The notes under the pieces are model-generated. The model was not told the origin of the DNA and made no database searches. It saw only the letters and a program-made list of their open reading frames with translations. 49,366 bases of DNA from Candidatus Zixiibacteriota bacterium (GTDB lineage Bacteria > Zixibacteria > MSB-5A5 > GN15 > PGXB01): assembly GCA_030667525.1 (NCBI GenBank), contig DAOUVS010000002.1:1-49366 (forward strand). Reading direction: 5' to 3'. The position numbers and the translations under genes are program-made. How positions within the stretch are numbered: the stretch's first letter is position 1; each line of letters opens with the position of its first letter. Shown piece after piece: positions 2,658-41,712 of the stretch.

Positions 2658-4922
2658 TTACGAGCTGCTTTTAAGTTTCGCCAATCTTTCTTTGGCATCT
2701 TCCACCGATTCCAATTCTTCATCGGCATTTTTCCAGATATTAAGAAACGCCTCATATTGTTCAACTGCCTTCTGATATTTACCTGTTTTTTCATAAGCGA
2801 GACCGAGATAATAGTACAATTTCGTTGACATAATAGGGAAATATGAGCGCTGGGCCCCATATTCATGTTGTATTCCCTCAAATCCGGAGATTGCCTTATC
2901 ATATCGTTCGGCCAGATAGTACGCCTTAGAAAGCATATACATTACGACAAATTCATCATTGTGATCTCGCGACTTTTCAAAACTGAGACAGGCTTTTTCA
3001 TAGTTCCCTTCGGCGATGTCAATGGCGCCGACTGCATACCAGTAGGTATATTGCATACTATTAGTTTCTTCAACGTGAGCTTTCAGATCCTTTAGTTTAT
3101 TTTTTGTTCCATTAAGATCGCCGCTCTCAGCTAGAGTCTGAATGCCAAGATAGACATAGTAAGCTTTGCTAACAGGGTTGGTAGCCTGGTATAGCTCAAC
3201 GGTCTTGTCGGTTTCATCAAGAGCCAAAGCCCAATTTTTCTGCTCAATATATATTCTTGATTTATAATAATGGTTAATGGTATAGTCTATATCGGAAGCA
3301 CCAATTGCATCATCAAATCTTTTTAGAGCTTCGTTGAATTTTCCTTGAAACAATGGAATGAATGCCCTTAATTTCAAAGCCTCCGACTTCTGACTTTCTA
3401 TTCCCTGCAGAATATTTATGCAGCTGTCGGCTTTGTCATACTCCTGTTCAAAAATATACATCAGGCAAAGCTTCCTCAGTGAGGCATAAAAATTTGGCTT
3501 GACGGTCAATGCTCTTTTATATGAATCAATGGCATTATCCAGCATCCCATTTAGGCCATATATTTCAGCCTTAGTATCAAGTGGGTTGGCTTCATCGGGG
3601 GCAAGTTCAATGTACTTATCAATGGCCCGGAGCGATTTTTCAAAATCTCCAATATTATTATAGATATAGGCCAGTTGATTATAAGCCATTTTAAATAATG
3701 GGTCTAACTCAATTGCCTTATAAAGAAAAACAATGGCGGAGTCAAATCGCTGAAAGCGATTATAATAAACTCCCAATTGATAATAGGCATCTTTTTCATC
3801 TGGGTATCTCTTTATAATCTTGTACAATTCCCCCAAAGAACTATCACACTCATTATTGATCATTGCCTCAAGACTTCGGATATATAACTTTTCCTTCTGG
3901 GTCACATTCTCAGAATACTGCAGCACTTTGGAGATCAGCGAAGCATCTTTGAGTGTGGTTAAGGCATAATAAGCCATCGCAAAGGTCGAATCATACTCAA
4001 TCGCCTTTTCATAATATTTAACTGCTTCATCGCTATAGTACTTGCTCGAATACTCATCACCCATCAAATAGTACCGATATGCCTCAGCAGAATGGGTGGT
4101 GACATCGGCCACAGCCGGATCAGGCTCTTCGTAGGCCTCGGCCGGAAGTGCAAGATCAGATTTTATCTCAACTGAGAGTTGGTCAACAAGAGAAAATATA
4201 TCCTGAGATTCTTTTCCGGTAACTTTCTGGGTTGCGACAACATCACCATTCGAAGCATTTATTATCTGAGACGTCAAAATCAAATGCGGTTCAATTTGTA
4301 AAATACTACCAGTCAGAAGCCATCTCGATCCTGATTTTTGTGCTACTTCGGAAGCGATACTTCTATCAATTATTTTGGTTCCTTCTTGACCGAGAAATTT
4401 TAGTATATCATATAGACGTTGACTGGATACGACTTGCATATATTGAGATTCGGCCAGATCGGTAATTAGAAGATTTGTGGCAATCTCCCCATATTGTAAG
4501 GAGTCGTCCGGTTCGGCTAAATTCTCAAAATACATAATTGCCAATCGATTTTCGGCCGCGATTGCTTCTTTGGAAGGACTTATATCAAATTGCCAATCTT
4601 TCAAAACAAGAACCAAAAACAATGCCGCAGCGGCCGCTATTGGAATAAAGGTTTTCCAGAGTTTTTTTGATCTGATTGGTATTATCTGCGTAGTAGATTT
4701 TTCGACTTCGATATAATCTTTTTCAATGAACTGCTTTACCGATTCCTGCACATCCGGATCATTTCTTAAAAGAAAAGCTTCCTGTTTGAATTTATTCAGT
4801 TCTTCAAAACATGAATCGCACTCCAGCAAATGAATTTCAAATTCATTCCGGCTTTCTTCAGGTAATAGCCCCAATTCATAGGCATATATCATATCACTGA
4901 AATGTTTTTCTCTGCAACTCAT
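2658..4922 (-). CDS. Putative zf-HC2-like anti-sigma/TolB-FlgO-like domain/TPR protein
   Basis: N-terminal MSCREKHFSDMIYAYELGLLPEESRNEFEIHLLECDSCFEEL (H..C..C zinc-finger pattern), one TM segment, AIMYFENLAEPDDSLQYGEIATNLLITDLAES TolB-like region, then many TPRs. Sits 4 bp downstream of the sigma factor gene. Confidence 0.75.
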   Translation of the reverse strand: MSCREKHFSDMIYAYELGLLPEESRNEFEIHLLECDSCFEELNKFKQEAFLLRNDPDVQESVKQFIEKDYIEVEKSTTQIIPIRSKKLWKTFIPIAAAAALFLVLVLKDWQFDISPSKEAIAAENRLAIMYFENLAEPDDSLQYGEIATNLLITDLAESQYMQVVSSQRLYDILKFLGQEGTKIIDRSIASEVAQKSGSRWLLTGSILQIEPHLILTSQIINASNGDVVATQKVTGKESQDIFSLVDQLSVEIKSDLALPAEAYEEPDPAVADVTTHSAEAYRYYLMGDEYSSKYYSDEAVKYYEKAIEYDSTFAMAYYALTTLKDASLISKVLQYSENVTQKEKLYIRSLEAMINNECDSSLGELYKIIKRYPDEKDAYYQLGVYYNRFQRFDSAIVFLYKAIELDPLFKMAYNQLAYIYNNIGDFEKSLRAIDKYIELAPDEANPLDTKAEIYGLNGMLDNAIDSYKRALTVKPNFYASLRKLCLMYIFEQEYDKADSCINILQGIESQKSEALKLRAFIPLFQGKFNEALKRFDDAIGASDIDYTINHYYKSRIYIEQKNWALALDETDKTVELYQATNPVSKAYYVYLGIQTLAESGDLNGTKNKLKDLKAHVEETNSMQYTYWYAVGAIDIAEGNYEKACLSFEKSRDHNDEFVVMYMLSKAYYLAERYDKAISGFEGIQHEYGAQRSYFPIMSTKLYYYLGLAYEKTGKYQKAVEQYEAFLNIWKNADEELESVEDAKERLAKLKSSS

Positions 4923-35119: not shown

Positions 35120-36655
35120 TTGGAGGCAGTTATGACTATCAAATTAAGCGGTGCCGATTTAACCATTGAAAAATTGGTTAAGGTTGCCAGAGATAATGAA
35201 AAAGTGGAGCTTCATCCCAAAGCTATCGAGCGGATCAAGAAATGCCGCAAAATGCTGGAAGACAAAATCGAAGCCGGTGAGATCATGTATGGCGTCAATA
35301 CCGGCATTGGTGAATTCTCCGAGCTTGTTCTCAATGACGATCAGGTCAAAGATTTTCAGAAATATCTGATTTATAATCATTCGGCCGGCATTGGTGACCC
35401 GGCCCCGATAGAATATGTCCGCGGCGCGATGGCCGGAAGAATCAATGTCCATGCTCATGGTCAATCGGGTGTCCGCCTGGAGATTACTCAGACCTTGGTT
35501 GATATGCTAAACAAAGGCGTGACCCCCTTTGTTTGCCAGAAAGGTTCGGTCGGTGCTTGCGGTGATCTGGCCCCGATGGCTCAGGTTGCTCTCCTGATGA
35601 TGGGCGAGGGCAAAGCCTACTATAAAGGCGAGCTTCTTCCCGGCAAAGAGGCGATGGCCAAAGCCGGAATTCCGATCCCCGGTTTAAAAGCAAGAGACGG
35701 CCTCGCTACTATCAACGGCTCCAATGTTCTAACCGCCATGAGCGCTATTTTGTTGTATGATGCCGAAAGATGGCTCAAACAGGCCGAGATCGCAACCGCC
35801 ATGTCACTCGAAGCGCTCAAAGCAAATATGAAACCTTACAGCGCAAAACTCCATGAAGCGCGCGGTTTCACTGGCGCAATCAGAACCGCCAAAACCATTG
35901 CCGATCTTGTCGCCGGAGGTGATCTGGCCGAAAATAAGATTAAATGCAAAATACAGGATGCCTACTCAATGCGCTCGACCCCACAGGTCATTGGTGCCGC
36001 CTTTGATGCCCTCAATTACGCCCGCTCTCAGGTGGAGATTGAACTCAATGGCGTCGGTGATAATCCGGTCTTTTTCCCCGATGATAACCTGCAGATCTCA
36101 GGCGCAAATTTCCAGGGAACACCGGTCGCTTTGCCGAGGGATATGGTCGGCATTGCTATCACCATGGTCAGCGTCATGTCCGAACGGCGAATGAACCGCC
36201 TGAACAATCCTGCTTTGTCGGTTGGTCTGCCGGCCTTTTTGACCAAAGGAGCCGGGATGTTTTCCGGTTTGATGCTTTCGCAATATACCGCCGATTCGTT
36301 GATTGTTGAGCAACGGATTCTATCGGCACCAGCCTCGATTCAATCGATACCGGCTGCCGCCGATCAGGAAGATTTTGTCTCGATGGGCATGAACACCGCC
36401 ATCAAAAATTTCCAGATTTATGACAACGCCTGTGGAGTTTTGGGAATAGAATTTATGGCCGCGGCGCAGGCGCTTGATTTCCGTGATTACAAATTTGGTC
36501 TTGGTGTCACCAAAGCCCATGAGGTTATCCGCCGCCATGTTGAATTTCTTGATATTGACCGACCGCTTTATGAGGACCACACTAATATGCAAAAATTGGT
36601 CAGATCGTGCGAAATTCTGGAGGAAGTCGAAAAAGCTATCGGCCCGCTTGAGTAA
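35120..36655 (+). CDS. Aromatic amino acid lyase/aminomutase family (HAL/PAL/TAL) with ACG MIO triad
   Basis: MYGVNTGIGEFSELV; VGACGDLAPMAQVALLMMGEGKAYYKG; QDAYSMRSTPQVIGA; GDNPVFFPDD...SGANFQGTPVA; TNMQKLVRSCEILEEVE. The likely start is MTIKLSG at 35132. Confidence 0.92.
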   Translation: MEAVMTIKLSGADLTIEKLVKVARDNEKVELHPKAIERIKKCRKMLEDKIEAGEIMYGVNTGIGEFSELVLNDDQVKDFQKYLIYNHSAGIGDPAPIEYVRGAMAGRINVHAHGQSGVRLEITQTLVDMLNKGVTPFVCQKGSVGACGDLAPMAQVALLMMGEGKAYYKGELLPGKEAMAKAGIPIPGLKARDGLATINGSNVLTAMSAILLYDAERWLKQAEIATAMSLEALKANMKPYSAKLHEARGFTGAIRTAKTIADLVAGGDLAENKIKCKIQDAYSMRSTPQVIGAAFDALNYARSQVEIELNGVGDNPVFFPDDNLQISGANFQGTPVALPRDMVGIAITMVSVMSERRMNRLNNPALSVGLPAFLTKGAGMFSGLMLSQYTADSLIVEQRILSAPASIQSIPAAADQEDFVSMGMNTAIKNFQIYDNACGVLGIEFMAAAQALDFRDYKFGLGVTKAHEVIRRHVEFLDIDRPLYEDHTNMQKLVRSCEILEEVEKAIGPLE

Positions 36656-36857: not shown

Positions 36858-37796
36858 ATGAGGACAATTAAATTTCTGATTTCACTGATTTTGCTTCTTG
36901 CCGTTTCCACTTTCGCCGATTATGAGGATACCAAAATTCTCAGTCTTTCGGCCGATGGTATCGAACAGTTTGAAATCGATTGCAGCGCCGGTTATTTGCA
37001 AATTAGGGGAGTCGAGGGCCTTGCCACTATTGAAGTTGAGGCTGAAATTTATATTGAGGGGATGAAAAAATCCAAAGCGCAAGATTTTATCGAAGACAAT
37101 TTGAATCTGTCGCTTCGGGAAAGAGGCAAAACAGCCCGATTAATCAGTAACTTTGACAATTCCGGTTTTTCATTCGGTCTCTTTACAGGTTTTAGATCAG
37201 CAGGAATAAATCTGACCATCAAGGTGCCCAAAAATCTGCTTATTGATATTAAAGATGGTTCCGGCGACATCATGATCGAGGATATCGAAAACGAAATAGA
37301 TATAAACGATGGTTCCGGTGACATTGAAATTGAAAATATTATAGGACGGCTGGATATTTCGGACGGATCCGGAGATCTAAGACTGACCGATATCGAAGGT
37401 GACATTCGTCTTGAGGATGGTTCCGGGGAAATTACTTTTGATAATATCAAAGGTAATATCGATATCGACGATGGCTCAGGCGATATTGAATTTGAGCAGA
37501 TTATCGGTTCGATTGAACTTGATGACGGCTCTGGTGAAATTGATGCCAACGAGATTGAGGGAGATTTCTTTATTGATGATGGTTCCGGCAATATTGATAT
37601 AAGAGCCGTTACCGGTGATGTGGAAATTGACGATGGTTCCGGAGATATAGAAGTGGCCAAAATCGGCGGGACAGTGATTGTCGATGATGGTTCCGGGAGC
37701 ATTCGGATTGACGATGTCAGAGGTGATGTTGAGATTATCGACGATGATTCAGGACGTTGCCGCATTACCAATGTTGATGGCCGCGTCAAAGACTAA
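36858..37796 (+). CDS. DUF4097-like secreted repeat protein (predicted beta-solenoid)
   Basis: Signal peptide; from 37254 onward about nine strict 18-aa repeats of DGSGDIEIENIxGxIDID. Confidence 0.85.
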   Translation: MRTIKFLISLILLLAVSTFADYEDTKILSLSADGIEQFEIDCSAGYLQIRGVEGLATIEVEAEIYIEGMKKSKAQDFIEDNLNLSLRERGKTARLISNFDNSGFSFGLFTGFRSAGINLTIKVPKNLLIDIKDGSGDIMIEDIENEIDINDGSGDIEIENIIGRLDISDGSGDLRLTDIEGDIRLEDGSGEITFDNIKGNIDIDDGSGDIEFEQIIGSIELDDGSGEIDANEIEGDFFIDDGSGNIDIRAVTGDVEIDDGSGDIEVAKIGGTVIVDDGSGSIRIDDVRGDVEIIDDDSGRCRITNVDGRVKD

Positions 37797-37900
37797 AATA
37801 TTATGTGCGCGGCAGATAGCCAAAAAAATCCACATCTGCCCGGATGTATTGTTGATGATTGCGTTAGATTAAATTAGCCCGCTTCTTATTTTACCATAAA

Positions 37901-37922
37901 GGCGGGAGCTTCGGCTCCCGCC
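37901..37922. terminator. Strong terminator hairpin between convergent genes
   Basis: GGCGGGAGC-TTCG-GCTCCCGCC followed by TATTTTA. Confidence 0.85.
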
Positions 37923-37999
37923 TATTTTAATGCCATAACCAACTAAGCTTATCAAAAATTATACAGTGATTTGGTGGGGAAAGTGAATTATTACTTCAC

Positions 38000-39700
38000 T
38001 TATTTTTGTCGAAACAACTTATCTGATTGAGATAAAGACAATATCTCATATCGATCAACTTCTATATCATCAGGAAGCTTATCCCTGAGAACAGGTAATA
38101 TGTACTGGCAATTAACTTCAGCAACTATTTCGGTAAGAAGGCTATTGATTTGATTGCCGTGAATATTTTCAAACTGATCCTGAAGAATAAAATGCAAACA
38201 TTTAATATCATATGCATCAGCAAATTGAATATAGGCCAGATCAAAAGCCGCAATCTGACCCTTTTTCTTGCCCGTACCAAGGTTTCCGCTTAGGCTACTT
38301 ATCCTGAGTTGATATCCTCTATCCTCCTTATCTGCACTAAGAACAAATTGTTCTCCATAAAGTTTATTCGACATCTCAGAAAAATATTTGTTAAACTCCG
38401 CAACTCTTTTTTGTATTATGCCATCTTTGGATGCAATTCCGGCATTGATTTCATTCAATTCTGTACTAATTTCATCCAATCGAGCTTCCGAATATTTCCA
38501 CAATCTTCTTTGTTCTTCAATAGTACCCTTCTTCTCATGAGCCTTGCTTATGTCAGCGATAATTCCTTGTAGTTCATCTACAACGCCTAATTTGTTAAGC
38601 TCCCTAGCAAGTTTCTTCTCTTGTGCCAAAAGCTCTGAAACTTTCCTTTTTGTGGCCGCAAGTTCTGACTCAAGAGTCGGGATTTCATTTGTAATATATT
38701 CCATTTTCATTTTTATCATTAGATTGTGAAACTTTATTGTATCTTCAAATGACTTTTGAAGTTCAGGAATTAAAAATTTGGCTTCCTTATACATTGCCAT
38801 AATTTGTTGGCCCTTAACCGAACTTACTTCATTTTCGAGTTCTGTCTTGCTCGCTGCTATTAAGTCTCTACGAAGTTCCATGCTGCTCAAAGATGTAGAC
38901 AGTTTGTTAATTTGAAATTTTATCCGGTTAAGTTTTTCAAAATCTTGCTCGTATTTCTTATTAACACAAAAACTATTTTTTTTCTCCGTTAAATCATCGA
39001 TGGTTCTTTTCACAACGATTAATGATTGCTCCAATTGAGAAAGTGTCACCTCTCGTTTTAGTCTATTAAGAAGATTATTTTCTATCGTTTGATCTCGAAG
39101 AAGCTGTTGTTTTCGCGCACTAGTATCTAATTCGATACCAAGCCAAAATAAATAAAGTGATTCATATTCTTCAACTGTTGTGAATGGATTCAGTACCTTC
39201 ACTGCAAAAGCAATCCTATTATTTTCATCTCTAATATTCTTTGCTATTATTTGTTTCAGTTTTGGTTTCTCATGAGTTGATGCGAAAATGAGTTCTTTAA
39301 GATTATTTTGAAACTCACTTACTTTCTGCTTTTCACCATTGATTTCAAGTATTTTGTCCTTTTGACTGAGGAAATTCCTTCTTATTTCAATCTCACGCGA
39401 TCTTGGCGACTCCAAATCATCCTTTAACGTCATGGAGATTATGATATTATTATTCTTAAGGAACCGCTCTATTTGAGTATTGGTTTTTTCCTTAAACTCG
39501 GGATCCTTATATATGTTCTTACCGTCACCACCAAAGCAATAGTAGATAAGCCTCAACACTGTTGTTTTGCCTACATTGTTCCCAGACTCCCTTCTGTCGA
39601 TAGTTTTGGTTTCATCGATGATAAGATTAAGGCCTTTGTGAAATTGAATATCCCTTATTAGTTCAAGTCCATTACTAATTGTTAGTTTTTTTAGAAACAT
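38000..39700 (-). CDS. SMC/RecN-like P-loop ATPase, DUF2326-type; putative ABC-3C system ATPase
   Basis: KGLNLIIDETKTIDRRESGNNVGKTTVLRLIYYCFGG Walker A near the N-terminus; long coiled coil; C-terminal IAAFDLAYIQFADAYDIKCLHFILQDQFENIHGNQINSLLTEI Walker B/D-loop-like region. Confidence 0.78.
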   Translation of the reverse strand: MFLKKLTISNGLELIRDIQFHKGLNLIIDETKTIDRRESGNNVGKTTVLRLIYYCFGGDGKNIYKDPEFKEKTNTQIERFLKNNNIIISMTLKDDLESPRSREIEIRRNFLSQKDKILEINGEKQKVSEFQNNLKELIFASTHEKPKLKQIIAKNIRDENNRIAFAVKVLNPFTTVEEYESLYLFWLGIELDTSARKQQLLRDQTIENNLLNRLKREVTLSQLEQSLIVVKRTIDDLTEKKNSFCVNKKYEQDFEKLNRIKFQINKLSTSLSSMELRRDLIAASKTELENEVSSVKGQQIMAMYKEAKFLIPELQKSFEDTIKFHNLMIKMKMEYITNEIPTLESELAATKRKVSELLAQEKKLARELNKLGVVDELQGIIADISKAHEKKGTIEEQRRLWKYSEARLDEISTELNEINAGIASKDGIIQKRVAEFNKYFSEMSNKLYGEQFVLSADKEDRGYQLRISSLSGNLGTGKKKGQIAAFDLAYIQFADAYDIKCLHFILQDQFENIHGNQINSLLTEIVAEVNCQYILPVLRDKLPDDIEVDRYEILSLSQSDKLFRQK

Positions 39701-39921
39701 TTTACTATACGTCCTTTGTCATTAGTAACCGCACCAAGAAGAAATAGCCAGTCGAGAGTAAGAATAAACGCATTCATAGAGATGGTCTTATGTTTATTCA
39801 TTTGCTCAAATACATCAAACACATTAATGGGCCCGTCAGGTGAGTATTTCAGGACTTCAAGAAGTAAAGCGCCCAAGTGGTAAATTTGTCTCTCAGGCTT
39901 AATGTCTTTTCCTATTATCAT
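39691..39921 (-). CDS. Small ABC-3C middle-component-like protein (MC6-like, 76 aa)
   Basis: MIIGKDIKPERQIYHLGALLLEVLKYSPDGPINVFDVFEQMNKHKTISMNAFILTLDWLFLLGAVTNDKGRIVKCF; overlaps both neighbours. Size, position and winged-helix-like sequence fit MC6; name by recollection. Confidence 0.65.
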   Translation of the reverse strand: MIIGKDIKPERQIYHLGALLLEVLKYSPDGPINVFDVFEQMNKHKTISMNAFILTLDWLFLLGAVTNDKGRIVKCF

Positions 39922-40745
39922 ACCGACGGAGGCTCTTCTAGTATCTTACACCGCATGAAAGCATCAACCATTATAACGGTTACGCCAAACGAAATATCGT
40001 CTGATGAATTATTATTACTTTTTTCAGCCATGATTAATAACTTTTCCTGAACATCTTCAATAATATTGTCAGCATTATCCCTAATTATTTGCATGGGATT
40101 TTCATGGTTCTCGATATACTTCCCCTTTGTTTCAATATATATACGCTCTATGTTGCGCAATAGATTTGCCTTTTTGAACGATCCTTGTTCTTCCAGTGTC
40201 TGATACAAAGAATTGACTTTTGTATAGAATACTTTGTAGTCATCAATTAGCGCCTTATTTCGCTTTATGTCGTTATGGTTGATTTTCGCATTTATATCGA
40301 ATGCTACCATACCAGTTGATGGGCTTATCTCTTCAGAATCAAACTCAATTTCTGAAATAGCGGTGATTACAGTATTTAACAATAACGGGTGTTCATTGAA
40401 GAAACTGTAAGTTATTGTCGATTCGTGTTGCTTTTTCCAATCTTTAAGAACCTTAACAGGATATTTGGTTTCGTTATCTTTATTGTCAAACATTCTATGG
40501 CATTCGTCGCAAAGCAAAATAAGATTGTCAAAATGTCTTCGTTGATCATCATCCATATTAGGATTCCATCTCAAGCCATCCGCGGAAGCGGCTTCAATAT
40601 GGCAAATCTTGCTGATAATAGTTTTGCCATCTCTTGCTATTAAGGGCCGATTACAATCGGGTGCCGCACACTGATTGCCTGAAAGGGTGTGAAGCCTTTT
40701 AATTGTAGAAGGTTTATATTGTCTTGCTTTAGATTCTGAAGCCAT
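39918..40745 (-). CDS. HNH nuclease-fused third component of a putative ABC-3C system (CTD10-like)
   Basis: SGNQCAAPDCNRPLIARDGKTIISKICHIEAASADGLRWNPNMDDDQRRHFDNLILLCDECHRMFD HNH motif at the N-terminus; C-terminal region of about 150 aa is helical with no obvious nuclease motif. Confidence 0.72.
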   Translation of the reverse strand: MASESKARQYKPSTIKRLHTLSGNQCAAPDCNRPLIARDGKTIISKICHIEAASADGLRWNPNMDDDQRRHFDNLILLCDECHRMFDNKDNETKYPVKVLKDWKKQHESTITYSFFNEHPLLLNTVITAISEIEFDSEEISPSTGMVAFDINAKINHNDIKRNKALIDDYKVFYTKVNSLYQTLEEQGSFKKANLLRNIERIYIETKGKYIENHENPMQIIRDNADNIIEDVQEKLLIMAEKSNNNSSDDISFGVTVIMVDAFMRCKILEEPPSV

Positions 40746-40899: not shown

Positions 40900-41560
40900 T
40901 GGGCTGCGAAAATTCTATTATTTTCCCTACCAAACCAATGTTGATTCTATCCGCACCTATCTGTATATGACCGATTATGAAAATACAGGAAATTATCGAC
41001 GAGGTTCAACCGATTAGCCAAAAAACTTTTTATAGGCAAAACGAACCCATTTTCGTTGTAATTATATGAGAGTGTTTAGGCCGGGTGGCCCACAATTTAT
41101 TGTGGGTTTCTAAACAATTTCTCCACCAAACCAATGTTGATTCTATCCGCACCATTTCGTATATGAGTGATTATACGAATATTAGAATTGCATTTTCGCT
41201 ATCAACTTGATAGTCAAATGTCAAAAAAAACGGAACGAACCCATTTTTGTGATTCTGTCAGGAATCGGTTCCAAATGCTACGGAAAATGCGAAAAAACAT
41301 AAAAACGGAAAAGCGCCTGTCCTTCGAAGGAGGGAACCCATTTTGCTGTAACGAATAGTGGTGAAACCACTTATATCGGATTTTTGTCCTCATAAAAGCC
41401 TCTCGGTACAAAATTTTGTAGTAAATTTGTCGAAACCCTGCGGGATTTCGACCTACGGGAATTGTCAGGAGCGCAGGGCTCCTGACCTACTGGAAAATAA
41501 AAATATGACGAAACACCCGTCCGCCGTAGGAGGAAAGCCATTTTGCTGGATCGCTTGAAA
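40900..41560. repeat. Degenerate intergenic repeat region (direct repeats and hairpins)
   Basis: 29-bp identical accaaaccaatgttgattctatccgcacc at 40929-40957 and 41125-41153; four (gaac)ccatttt boxes at 41047, 41241, 41338 and 41538; hairpins at 41089-41106, 41429-41452 and 41464-41486. Confidence 0.75.
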
Positions 41561-41712
41561 GTAGATAACTTACAAAGAAAAATTGGCAAATTTAATACTC
41601 AGGGAACCATCTGGCTTGGATAATTGTTTAACAACAAAAGACCTTAAAAAATTGTTTTTGTTGACTTCGGAGCCAATAAATTACTTTCTTTTGAAAGTAT
41701 CGGGGAAATTAA

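What the first reader, a model, noticed from the sequence alone, without database searches (positions are those of the whole stretch)
38000..40745. Putative ABC-three-component (ABC-3C) conflict system with HNH effector
Three overlapping minus-strand genes: an HNH-fused protein, a 76-aa protein, and an SMC-like ATPase with early Walker A, long coiled coil and late Walker B. This matches the described ABC-3C layout (DUF2326-like ATPase, MC6-like middle component, CTD10-like third component carrying the effector). These systems are predicted to be anti-phage or conflict systems and most are uncharacterised experimentally. Flanking genes are unrelated to defense and the cassette sits beside a repeat-rich spacer, consistent with an accessory insertion.
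Basis: partly seen in the sequence, partly recalled or inferred. Interest (0 to 1): 0.74.

Follow-up and report, generated by a model that had tools for sequence, protein, structure and literature searches.

The report
HNH-nuclease ABC-3C (Lamassu-like) defence operon
Three overlapping bacterial genes encode a probable virus- or plasmid-sensing machine that releases a DNA-cutting enzyme; it is a good, intact example of a catalogued but experimentally untested family, and its relatives show that the cutting part is swappable and sometimes seems to be replaced by an amyloid-style trigger for a membrane protein.

Summary
The minus-strand operon 40745-38000 encodes HNH-CTD10 (275 aa), MC6 (76 aa) and a DUF2326 SMC/Rad50-like ATPase (566 aa). 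All four assignments (HNH_2, CTD10, MC6, DUF2326) pass Pfam's curated cut-offs. PADLOC calls two of the proteins PDC-M68A and PDC-M68B. It is a new member of a catalogued, experimentally untested kind. Gene order, and usually the exact gene overlaps, are conserved in about 78 related loci from about 20 phyla. The operon is absent from close relatives, so it is horizontally moving. Catalytic and zinc residues are intact; the Walker B site is D-Q, not D-E, as in Lamassu LmuB. Best mechanism: Lamassu-like. ATPase+MC6 hold the HNH protein silent, sense foreign DNA structure, then release a Cap5-type HNH that oligomerises and cuts DNA. The repeats beside the cassette are a genome-wide host repeat, not part of the system. 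Relatives reveal effector swapping: HNH, SMEK nuclease, or, in six loci, no enzyme at all. In those six a short motif at the N-terminus of the docking protein matches the C-terminus of an adjacent single-TM protein, the signature of amyloid signalling, which I found nowhere reported for ABC-3C/Lamassu.

The parts
39918..40745 (-). HNH-CTD10 protein, 275 aa: Cap5-type HNH nuclease domain (about residues 1-115) joined to an all-helical CTD10 docking domain (about 143-270); first gene of the operon
   Evidence: Pfam CTD10 1.8e-11 and HNH_2 1.1e-4, both above cut-off; PADLOC PDC-M68A 7e-33; C26, C31, H49, N74, C79, H83 invariant in 30 aligned homologues, position 82 always Cys or His; AF2 model pLDDT 89.4; Foldseek HNH = CBASS Cap5
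39691..39921 (-). MC6 middle component, 76 aa; possibly winged-helix-like (weak)
   Evidence: Pfam MC6 3.1e-17, cut-off passed; alignment A4; only a weak sequence match to winged-helix 1tbx, E 0.18
38000..39700 (-). DUF2326 SMC/Rad50/LmuB-like ATPase, 566 aa: split ABC head, coiled coil without zinc hook, Walker A GNNVGKTT (40-47), Walker B D508-Q509, invariant E511
   Evidence: Pfam DUF2326 1e-18; PADLOC PDC-M68B 3.9e-43, LmuB 1e-6; AF2 pLDDT 85.3; Foldseek YydD 6e-22, LmuB 5e-13; no CxxC in the coil of any of 81 homologues
37900..37923 (.). strong GC hairpin with TTCG loop between the convergent plus-strand gene 36858-37796 and the operon; probable terminator (shared or plus-strand)
   Evidence: terminator-like scan hit, 10 pairs, 8 GC; pattern match only

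Best explanation
This is a complete ABC-3C (Lamassu-superfamily) anti-invader operon with an HNH effector, the type catalogued as PDC-M68. Inferred working: a dimer of the DUF2326 ATPase with MC6 binds the CTD10 domain and so holds the HNH protein monomeric and silent. When the ATP-bound heads and coiled coils clamp an abnormal DNA structure (free end, hairpin or replication intermediate of a phage or plasmid), the HNH-CTD10 protein is let go, assembles through its HNH domain as Cap5 does, and cuts DNA without discrimination, stopping replication of the invader or killing the cell. Because Walker B lacks the usual catalytic glutamate (D-Q), hydrolysis is probably slow and firing close to one-way. 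Shown here: gene order, domain identities, intact catalytic residues, conservation, horizontal spread, and co-divergence of CTD10 with the ATPase. Inferred from Lamassu and Cap5: sequestration, release, oligomerisation, DNA trigger and cell death.
For: Profiles. HNH residues C26/C31/H49/N74/C79/H83 invariant. ATPase model resembles YydD in the YydD-YydB crosslinking model 9a6c (E 6e-22, TMq 0.54) and LmuB in LmuACB-DNA and 'nuclease sequestration state' structures (9uxh, 9hqx, 9hqu, 9nyg). The HNH model resembles Cap5 activated tetramers (8fmf, 9dih), and profile A2 finds them at 1e-6 and 9e-5, with other SAVED-HNH chains down to 5e-16. The CTD co-diverges with the ATPase (r 0.86), the HNH domain less so (0.62). 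In L033/L036 the ATPase (89%), MC6 (95%) and CTD (86%) are nearly unchanged while HNH is 50%: a docking domain with a swappable warhead. Distribution: no full-length ATPase in 59 relatives, MC6 in 3 of 134 genomes of the phylum, 74% identity to Ca. Electryonea and 66% to an Acidobacteriota MAG, phyla interleaved on the tree. GC is 35% against about 41% around it. Relatives' flanks carry type I R-M subunits, ResIII, YhcG and Fic proteins and integrases. Literature: Lamassu includes ABC-3C, LmuB E-to-Q, HNH among effectors (PMC10586767); LmuA liberated into a tetramer (PMC12409362).
Against: No phage or plasmid assay exists for an HNH-CTD10/MC6/DUF2326 system in anything I could read. CTD10 has no confident structural match to LmuA's C-terminal part (LmuACB rank 11, E 1.5). 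MC6 is not shown to be LmuC-like. The ATPase has no zinc hook, unlike many LmuB proteins, and sequence similarity to PADLOC LmuB models is weak (1e-6). The window's own flanks, as far as examined, hold no other defence genes. The R-M enrichment of relatives' flanks has no matched control. No complex could be modelled here.
Confidence: 0.72

Rival explanations
1. The operon defends mainly against plasmids and other mobile DNA, in the manner of DdmABC/Wadjet, rather than against lytic phage; the HNH cuts the plasmid instead of killing the cell.
For: DdmABC (type II Lamassu) eliminates plasmids (PMC12409362). Structural similarity to LmuB in DNA-bound complexes. Homologues sit on plasmids themselves, which fits competition between mobile elements.
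Against: Cap5-type HNH acts as an abortive effector in CBASS (established knowledge). Nothing in the sequence tells plasmid from phage targets.
Confidence: 0.35
2. A DNA-repair or stress-response ABC complex (Rad50/RecN-like) that has been put to housekeeping use, with HNH as a processing nuclease.
For: The fold is SMC/Rad50-like. Single copy in the genome.
Against: Patchy distribution, 0 of 59 relatives with the full ATPase. Phyla interleaved on the tree. The effector domain is exchanged for SMEK, another HNH type, or none. SMC_N is below its cut-off.
Confidence: 0.05
3. A selfish addiction module: HNH-CTD10 is the toxin, MC6 with the ATPase the antitoxin, kept because loss is lethal, with defence as a by-product.
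For: Compact overlapping operon, carried on plasmids in several hosts. The effector is kept inactive by its partners in the Lamassu model.
Against: The size and DNA-binding fold of a 566-aa SMC-like ATPase are excessive for an antitoxin. Many homologues are chromosomal.
Confidence: 0.1

Closest known systems
PADLOC candidate system PDC-M68 (PDC-M68A + PDC-M68B)
   Same: HNH-CTD protein and DUF2326 ATPase match at 7e-33 and 4e-43
   Different: PADLOC has no model matching the MC6 middle gene; the candidate is listed, not characterised in anything I could read
ABC-3C systems (Pfam CTD10 / MC6 / DUF2326; Krishnan et al. 2020, not held in the library, cited from PMC10586767 and PMC12137116)
   Same: exact three-part layout with the effector fused to the CTD; same overlaps as many homologues
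   Different: nothing essential; effector is a Cap5-type HNH instead of SMEK or others
B. subtilis YydBCD (PDB 9a6c, YydD-YydB crosslinking/deep-learning model)
   Same: best structural match of the ATPase (E 6e-22); B. subtilis also carries matches to MC6 and DUF2326; operon silenced by Rok, the xenogeneic silencer (PMC8894471)
   Different: B. subtilis has no CTD10 match, so the docking domain of YydB differs; function also unproven as far as I could read
Lamassu / DdmABC (LmuA-LmuC-LmuB; PDB 9uxh, 9hqx, 9hqu, 9nyg, 9ux7)
   Same: SMC/Rad50-like ATPase with degenerate Walker B, small middle protein, effector with N-terminal enzyme and C-terminal dock (PMC10586767)
   Different: no zinc hook, HNH instead of Cap4, CTD10 fold unlike solved LmuA, MC6 not shown to be LmuC
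CBASS Cap5 (SAVED-HNH)
   Same: same HNH nuclease type
   Different: no SAVED domain and no cyclase; control by the ATPase complex instead of a cyclic nucleotide

Membership tests
ABC-3C system | ABC/SMC-like ATPase with DUF2326 | tested here: met
   PF10088 1e-18, 67.8 bits against cut-off 28.7
ABC-3C system | small middle component (MC family) | tested here: met
   PF20293 MC6 3.1e-17, 62.8 bits against 27.2
ABC-3C system | third protein with a CTD family domain fused to an effector | tested here: met
   PF20275 CTD10 1.8e-11, 45.1 against 28.1; HNH_2 22.4 against 21
ABC-3C system | three genes in one operon, conserved together | tested here: met
   order kept in 78 of 80 fetched loci; in the other two no effector ORF was found next to the middle gene or the contig begins at the ATPase
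PDC-M68 (PADLOC) | both M68A and M68B match | tested here: met
   7.4e-33 and 3.9e-43
Lamassu (strict sense, LmuABC) | ATPase belongs to LmuB models | tested here: inconclusive
   LmuB profile 1e-6 only, PDC-M68B far better; structural matches to LmuB E 5e-13
Lamassu (strict sense, LmuABC) | LmuA C-terminal dock | tested here: inconclusive
   Foldseek LmuACB rank 11, E 1.5
Lamassu (strict sense, LmuABC) | zinc hook in the coiled coil (many, not all members) | tested here: not met
   no CxxC in the coil of the window protein or 80 homologues
Lamassu (strict sense, LmuABC) | Walker B Glu replaced | tested here: met
   D508-Q509; Q, K or R in 53 of 53
Lamassu / ABC-3C | phage or plasmid defence activity | not testable with these tools
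   needs an experiment
CBASS Cap5 | HNH fused to a SAVED sensor, with a cyclase gene | tested here: not met
   the C-terminal half is CTD10, not SAVED; no cyclase among the neighbouring ORFs examined
housekeeping RecN/SMC | scores as SMC_N above cut-off and is universal in relatives | tested here: not met
   14.4 bits against 40; absent in relatives

The most novel reading that the evidence does not exclude
The CTD10-MC6-DUF2326 chassis to which the window operon belongs is a general plug-in alarm. Its docking protein may carry a nuclease (as here) or, instead, a short amyloid-signalling motif that templates the matching motif of a neighbouring small membrane protein, making an SMC-triggered, NLR-independent amyloid cell-death pathway. 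Six loci in four phyla show this (L039, L041, L043, L074, L008, L111): an enzyme-less dock whose N-terminus matches the C-terminus of an adjacent single-TM protein better than any other locus's partner does.
Probability: 0.6. Interest if true: 0.8.

Novelty: new member of a known kind. Interest (0 to 1): 0.45.

Why it matters
The operon is a compact, intact and clone-ready representative of an ABC-3C subtype for which I found only database entries. Its nuclease belongs to a well-studied class (Cap5), so the key question, how an SMC-like sensor silences and then fires an effector, can be tested directly by point mutants. The family comparison shows that the sensor and dock stay constant while the warhead is swapped, and points to amyloid adaptors in place of a warhead, which would answer an open question in the field (whether bacterial signalling amyloids exist outside NLR pathways, posed in PMC7889193).

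Tried and rejected
Repeat-rich spacer as part of the cassette: rejected, it is a dispersed host repeat (77 matches in its own genome; also in the same-genus genome). Proof of an empty site in the same-genus genome G001: failed, because both flanking contigs break at this point (C86 ends at window about 37817, C289 at about 41511), although no operon DNA was found there. Housekeeping RecN/SMC: rejected. Cap5/CBASS membership: rejected, no SAVED domain. NCBIfam gave only sub-threshold hits. Phage records held no ATPase homologue. Viral-contig scans failed three times for machine reasons, so prophage carriage was not tested. Krishnan 2020 and the 2025 Lamassu structure papers are not held, so details from them are second-hand. 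In L004 and L006 (same class) the HNH+MC6 genes exist but CTD10 scores below cut-off. L075 looked enzyme-less but its gene runs off the contig end, so it was not counted as an amyloid type. The Acinetobacter plasmid locus has a split ATPase and no clear motif pair and was left out.

Full report
What is there. Pfam assigns HNH_2 and CTD10 to the first, MC6 to the second and DUF2326 to the third, all above the curated cut-offs. PADLOC names the first and third PDC-M68A (7e-33) and PDC-M68B (4e-43).

Intactness. The zinc and catalytic positions of the HNH domain, C26, C31, H49, N74, C79 and H83, are invariant in 31 of 31 homologues by one alignment and 30 of 30 by another, and position 82 is always Cys or His. 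Which of these bind zinc and which are catalytic is my inference from the HNH fold. In the ATPase the Walker A residues, D508 of Walker B, E511, G477 and K479 are invariant in 53 homologues. The residue after the Walker B aspartate is Q, K or R in all of them, not E, as reported for LmuB (PMC10586767). None of 81 homologues has a CxxC hook in the coil.

Structure. The HNH-CTD10 model is confident (pLDDT 89.4, pTM 0.87). Its best matches are the Cap5 effectors of CBASS, for the HNH part only (E about 1e-3, rmsd 2.2 over 106 columns), with B. subtilis YydB at rank 9 and LmuACB only weakly at rank 11. A profile of the family finds SAVED-HNH effectors and another HNH endonuclease (9om4) in the PDB at E down to 2e-21. 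The ATPase model (pLDDT 85.3) matches first YydD from the YydD-YydB crosslinking model 9a6c (E 6e-22, TMq 0.54) and then LmuB in several Lamassu complexes, including DNA-bound and 'nuclease sequestration' states. Experimental evidence of contact between ATPase and effector therefore exists for a relative (9a6c) and for Lamassu, not for this subtype.

Distribution. The ATPase is single-copy in the assembly. Among 60 genomes (its own and 59 of the same family or order) only the window's genome has a full-length match, and MC6 is in 3 of 134 genomes of the phylum, all with an HNH-type gene upstream. Yet a protein 74% identical occurs in a Ca. Electryonea MAG and one 66% identical in an Acidobacteriota MAG. 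On the tree the phyla are interleaved (32 label changes, least possible 20). The operon is 35% G+C in a region of about 41%. The neighbouring aromatic-lyase gene is universal in the family. These facts show an accessory, horizontally moving cassette. The adjacent repeats do not: they are a host-wide repeat.

Conservation of layout and modularity. In 78 of 80 fetched loci the order effector-MC6-ATPase is kept, and the 10-nt overlap is kept in 76 of 79. All 79 effector proteins, the window's included, match the window's CTD. Thirty relatives carry an HNH and about 43 carry a longer N-terminal domain, which is Pfam SMEK in all seven SMEK-type proteins that I scanned. The ATPase tree separates the HNH side from the SMEK side with full support. 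The CTD diverges in step with the ATPase (r 0.86), the HNH less so (0.62). In L033 versus L036 the ATPase, MC6 and CTD are 89, 95 and 86% identical while the HNH is 50%; L040 versus L064 gives 98, 99, 98 and 70%. The simplest reading is that CTD10 is the dock and the HNH is an exchangeable warhead. Flanks of 34 related loci most often encode type I R-M subunits, then ResIII, integrases, YhcG and Fic proteins; I had no matched control set, so this is supporting only.

Mechanism. I favour a Lamassu-like switch: the ATPase and MC6 hold the HNH-CTD10 protein apart and silent; recognition of an abnormal DNA structure releases it; the HNH assembles and cuts DNA. The release and tetramer steps are taken from reports on LmuA (PMC12409362) and from Cap5 tetramer structures (titles). 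They are inferred for this system. The trigger proposed for Lamassu is DNA ends or hairpins (PMC12904381).

A variant found on the way. In six related loci the CTD protein has no enzyme domain. In each case its first about 25-35 residues match the C-terminus of a tiny, single-TM protein encoded directly upstream, overlapping or a few bases away. Examples are QTSSGSGSNYASGRDINV / QTSSGLGDNFAALGDINI (Hymenobacter), KQKQKIGKEGTGYQTGSGGTININ / KQKQNIGKEGTGYQTGDNGVININ (a Bacteroidota MAG), SQTATGKVATNVVGSNN / SQSAIGKVATNITGDSN (Collinsella) and NNKLISKGNNNLQQVGGKNSNG / NNKLSAKGDSNVQQVGTTNING (Lacticaseibacillus plasmid). None of 20,000 shuffles reached any of the six scores, and of all 720 ways to pair the partners the true pairing scores best. 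In Collinsella most matched codons in the GKVATN core differ synonymously, so the peptide, not the DNA, is conserved. In Collinsella the deposited start codon lies downstream of the motif and hides it. CTD10 is recognised by Pfam in four of the six, below cut-off in Collinsella and not at all in Lacticaseibacillus, where MC6 and DUF2326 are clear. Matched motifs at the ends of adjacent receptor and membrane-effector genes are the published signature of bacterial amyloid signalling, so far described with NLR receptors (PMC7889193; PMC8086366). I found no held paper joining it to Lamassu or ABC-3C. Amyloid formation itself is untested.

Verdict. The finding is real and correctly read; it is a new member of a known, experimentally open kind. 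The more novel element is in the relatives, not in the window.

Noticed in passing
L039:3012-3775, L041:2862-3736, L043:3036-3775, L074:301-1046, L008:3987-4788, L111:2736-3546: Enzyme-less CTD proteins of the same MC6/DUF2326 systems whose N-terminal motif matches the C-terminus of an adjacent single-TM protein: probable amyloid-signalling (BASS/RHIM-like) variant of ABC-3C, not found described.
   Followed up: yes
L033, L034, L036; L040, L064: Recent exchange of the HNH warhead on a nearly unchanged ATPase/MC6/CTD chassis (HNH 50-70% against 78-99% for the rest).
   Followed up: yes
window 40918-41600: Dispersed intergenic repeat family, 77 matches in the assembly and many in a same-genus genome; both genus-mate contigs break at this site.
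   Followed up: partly
window 35120-36655: Aromatic amino acid lyase (histidine/phenylalanine ammonia-lyase type) whose MIO motif reads Ala-Cys-Gly instead of the usual Ala-Ser-Gly; the same Cys is in all five relatives checked (L094-L098).
   Followed up: partly
window 36858-37796: Protein with about ten degenerate repeats of the type [I/L]DDGSGDIEI, a probable right-handed beta-helix / adhesin-like surface or secreted protein; the opposite strand is also open (246 aa) as a by-product of the repeats.
   Followed up: no
L008:4183-4788 (NZ_OY725717.1): The RefSeq start of the Collinsella CTD gene (locus position 4336) appears too far downstream; the ORF starts at 4183, overlapping the TM gene, and contains the shared motif.
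   Followed up: yes
L112 (Acinetobacter seifertii plasmid pAS78-1): A DUF2326 system beside blaOXA-58 and type I R-M genes with the ATPase split into two ORFs, probably a decayed copy.
   Followed up: partly
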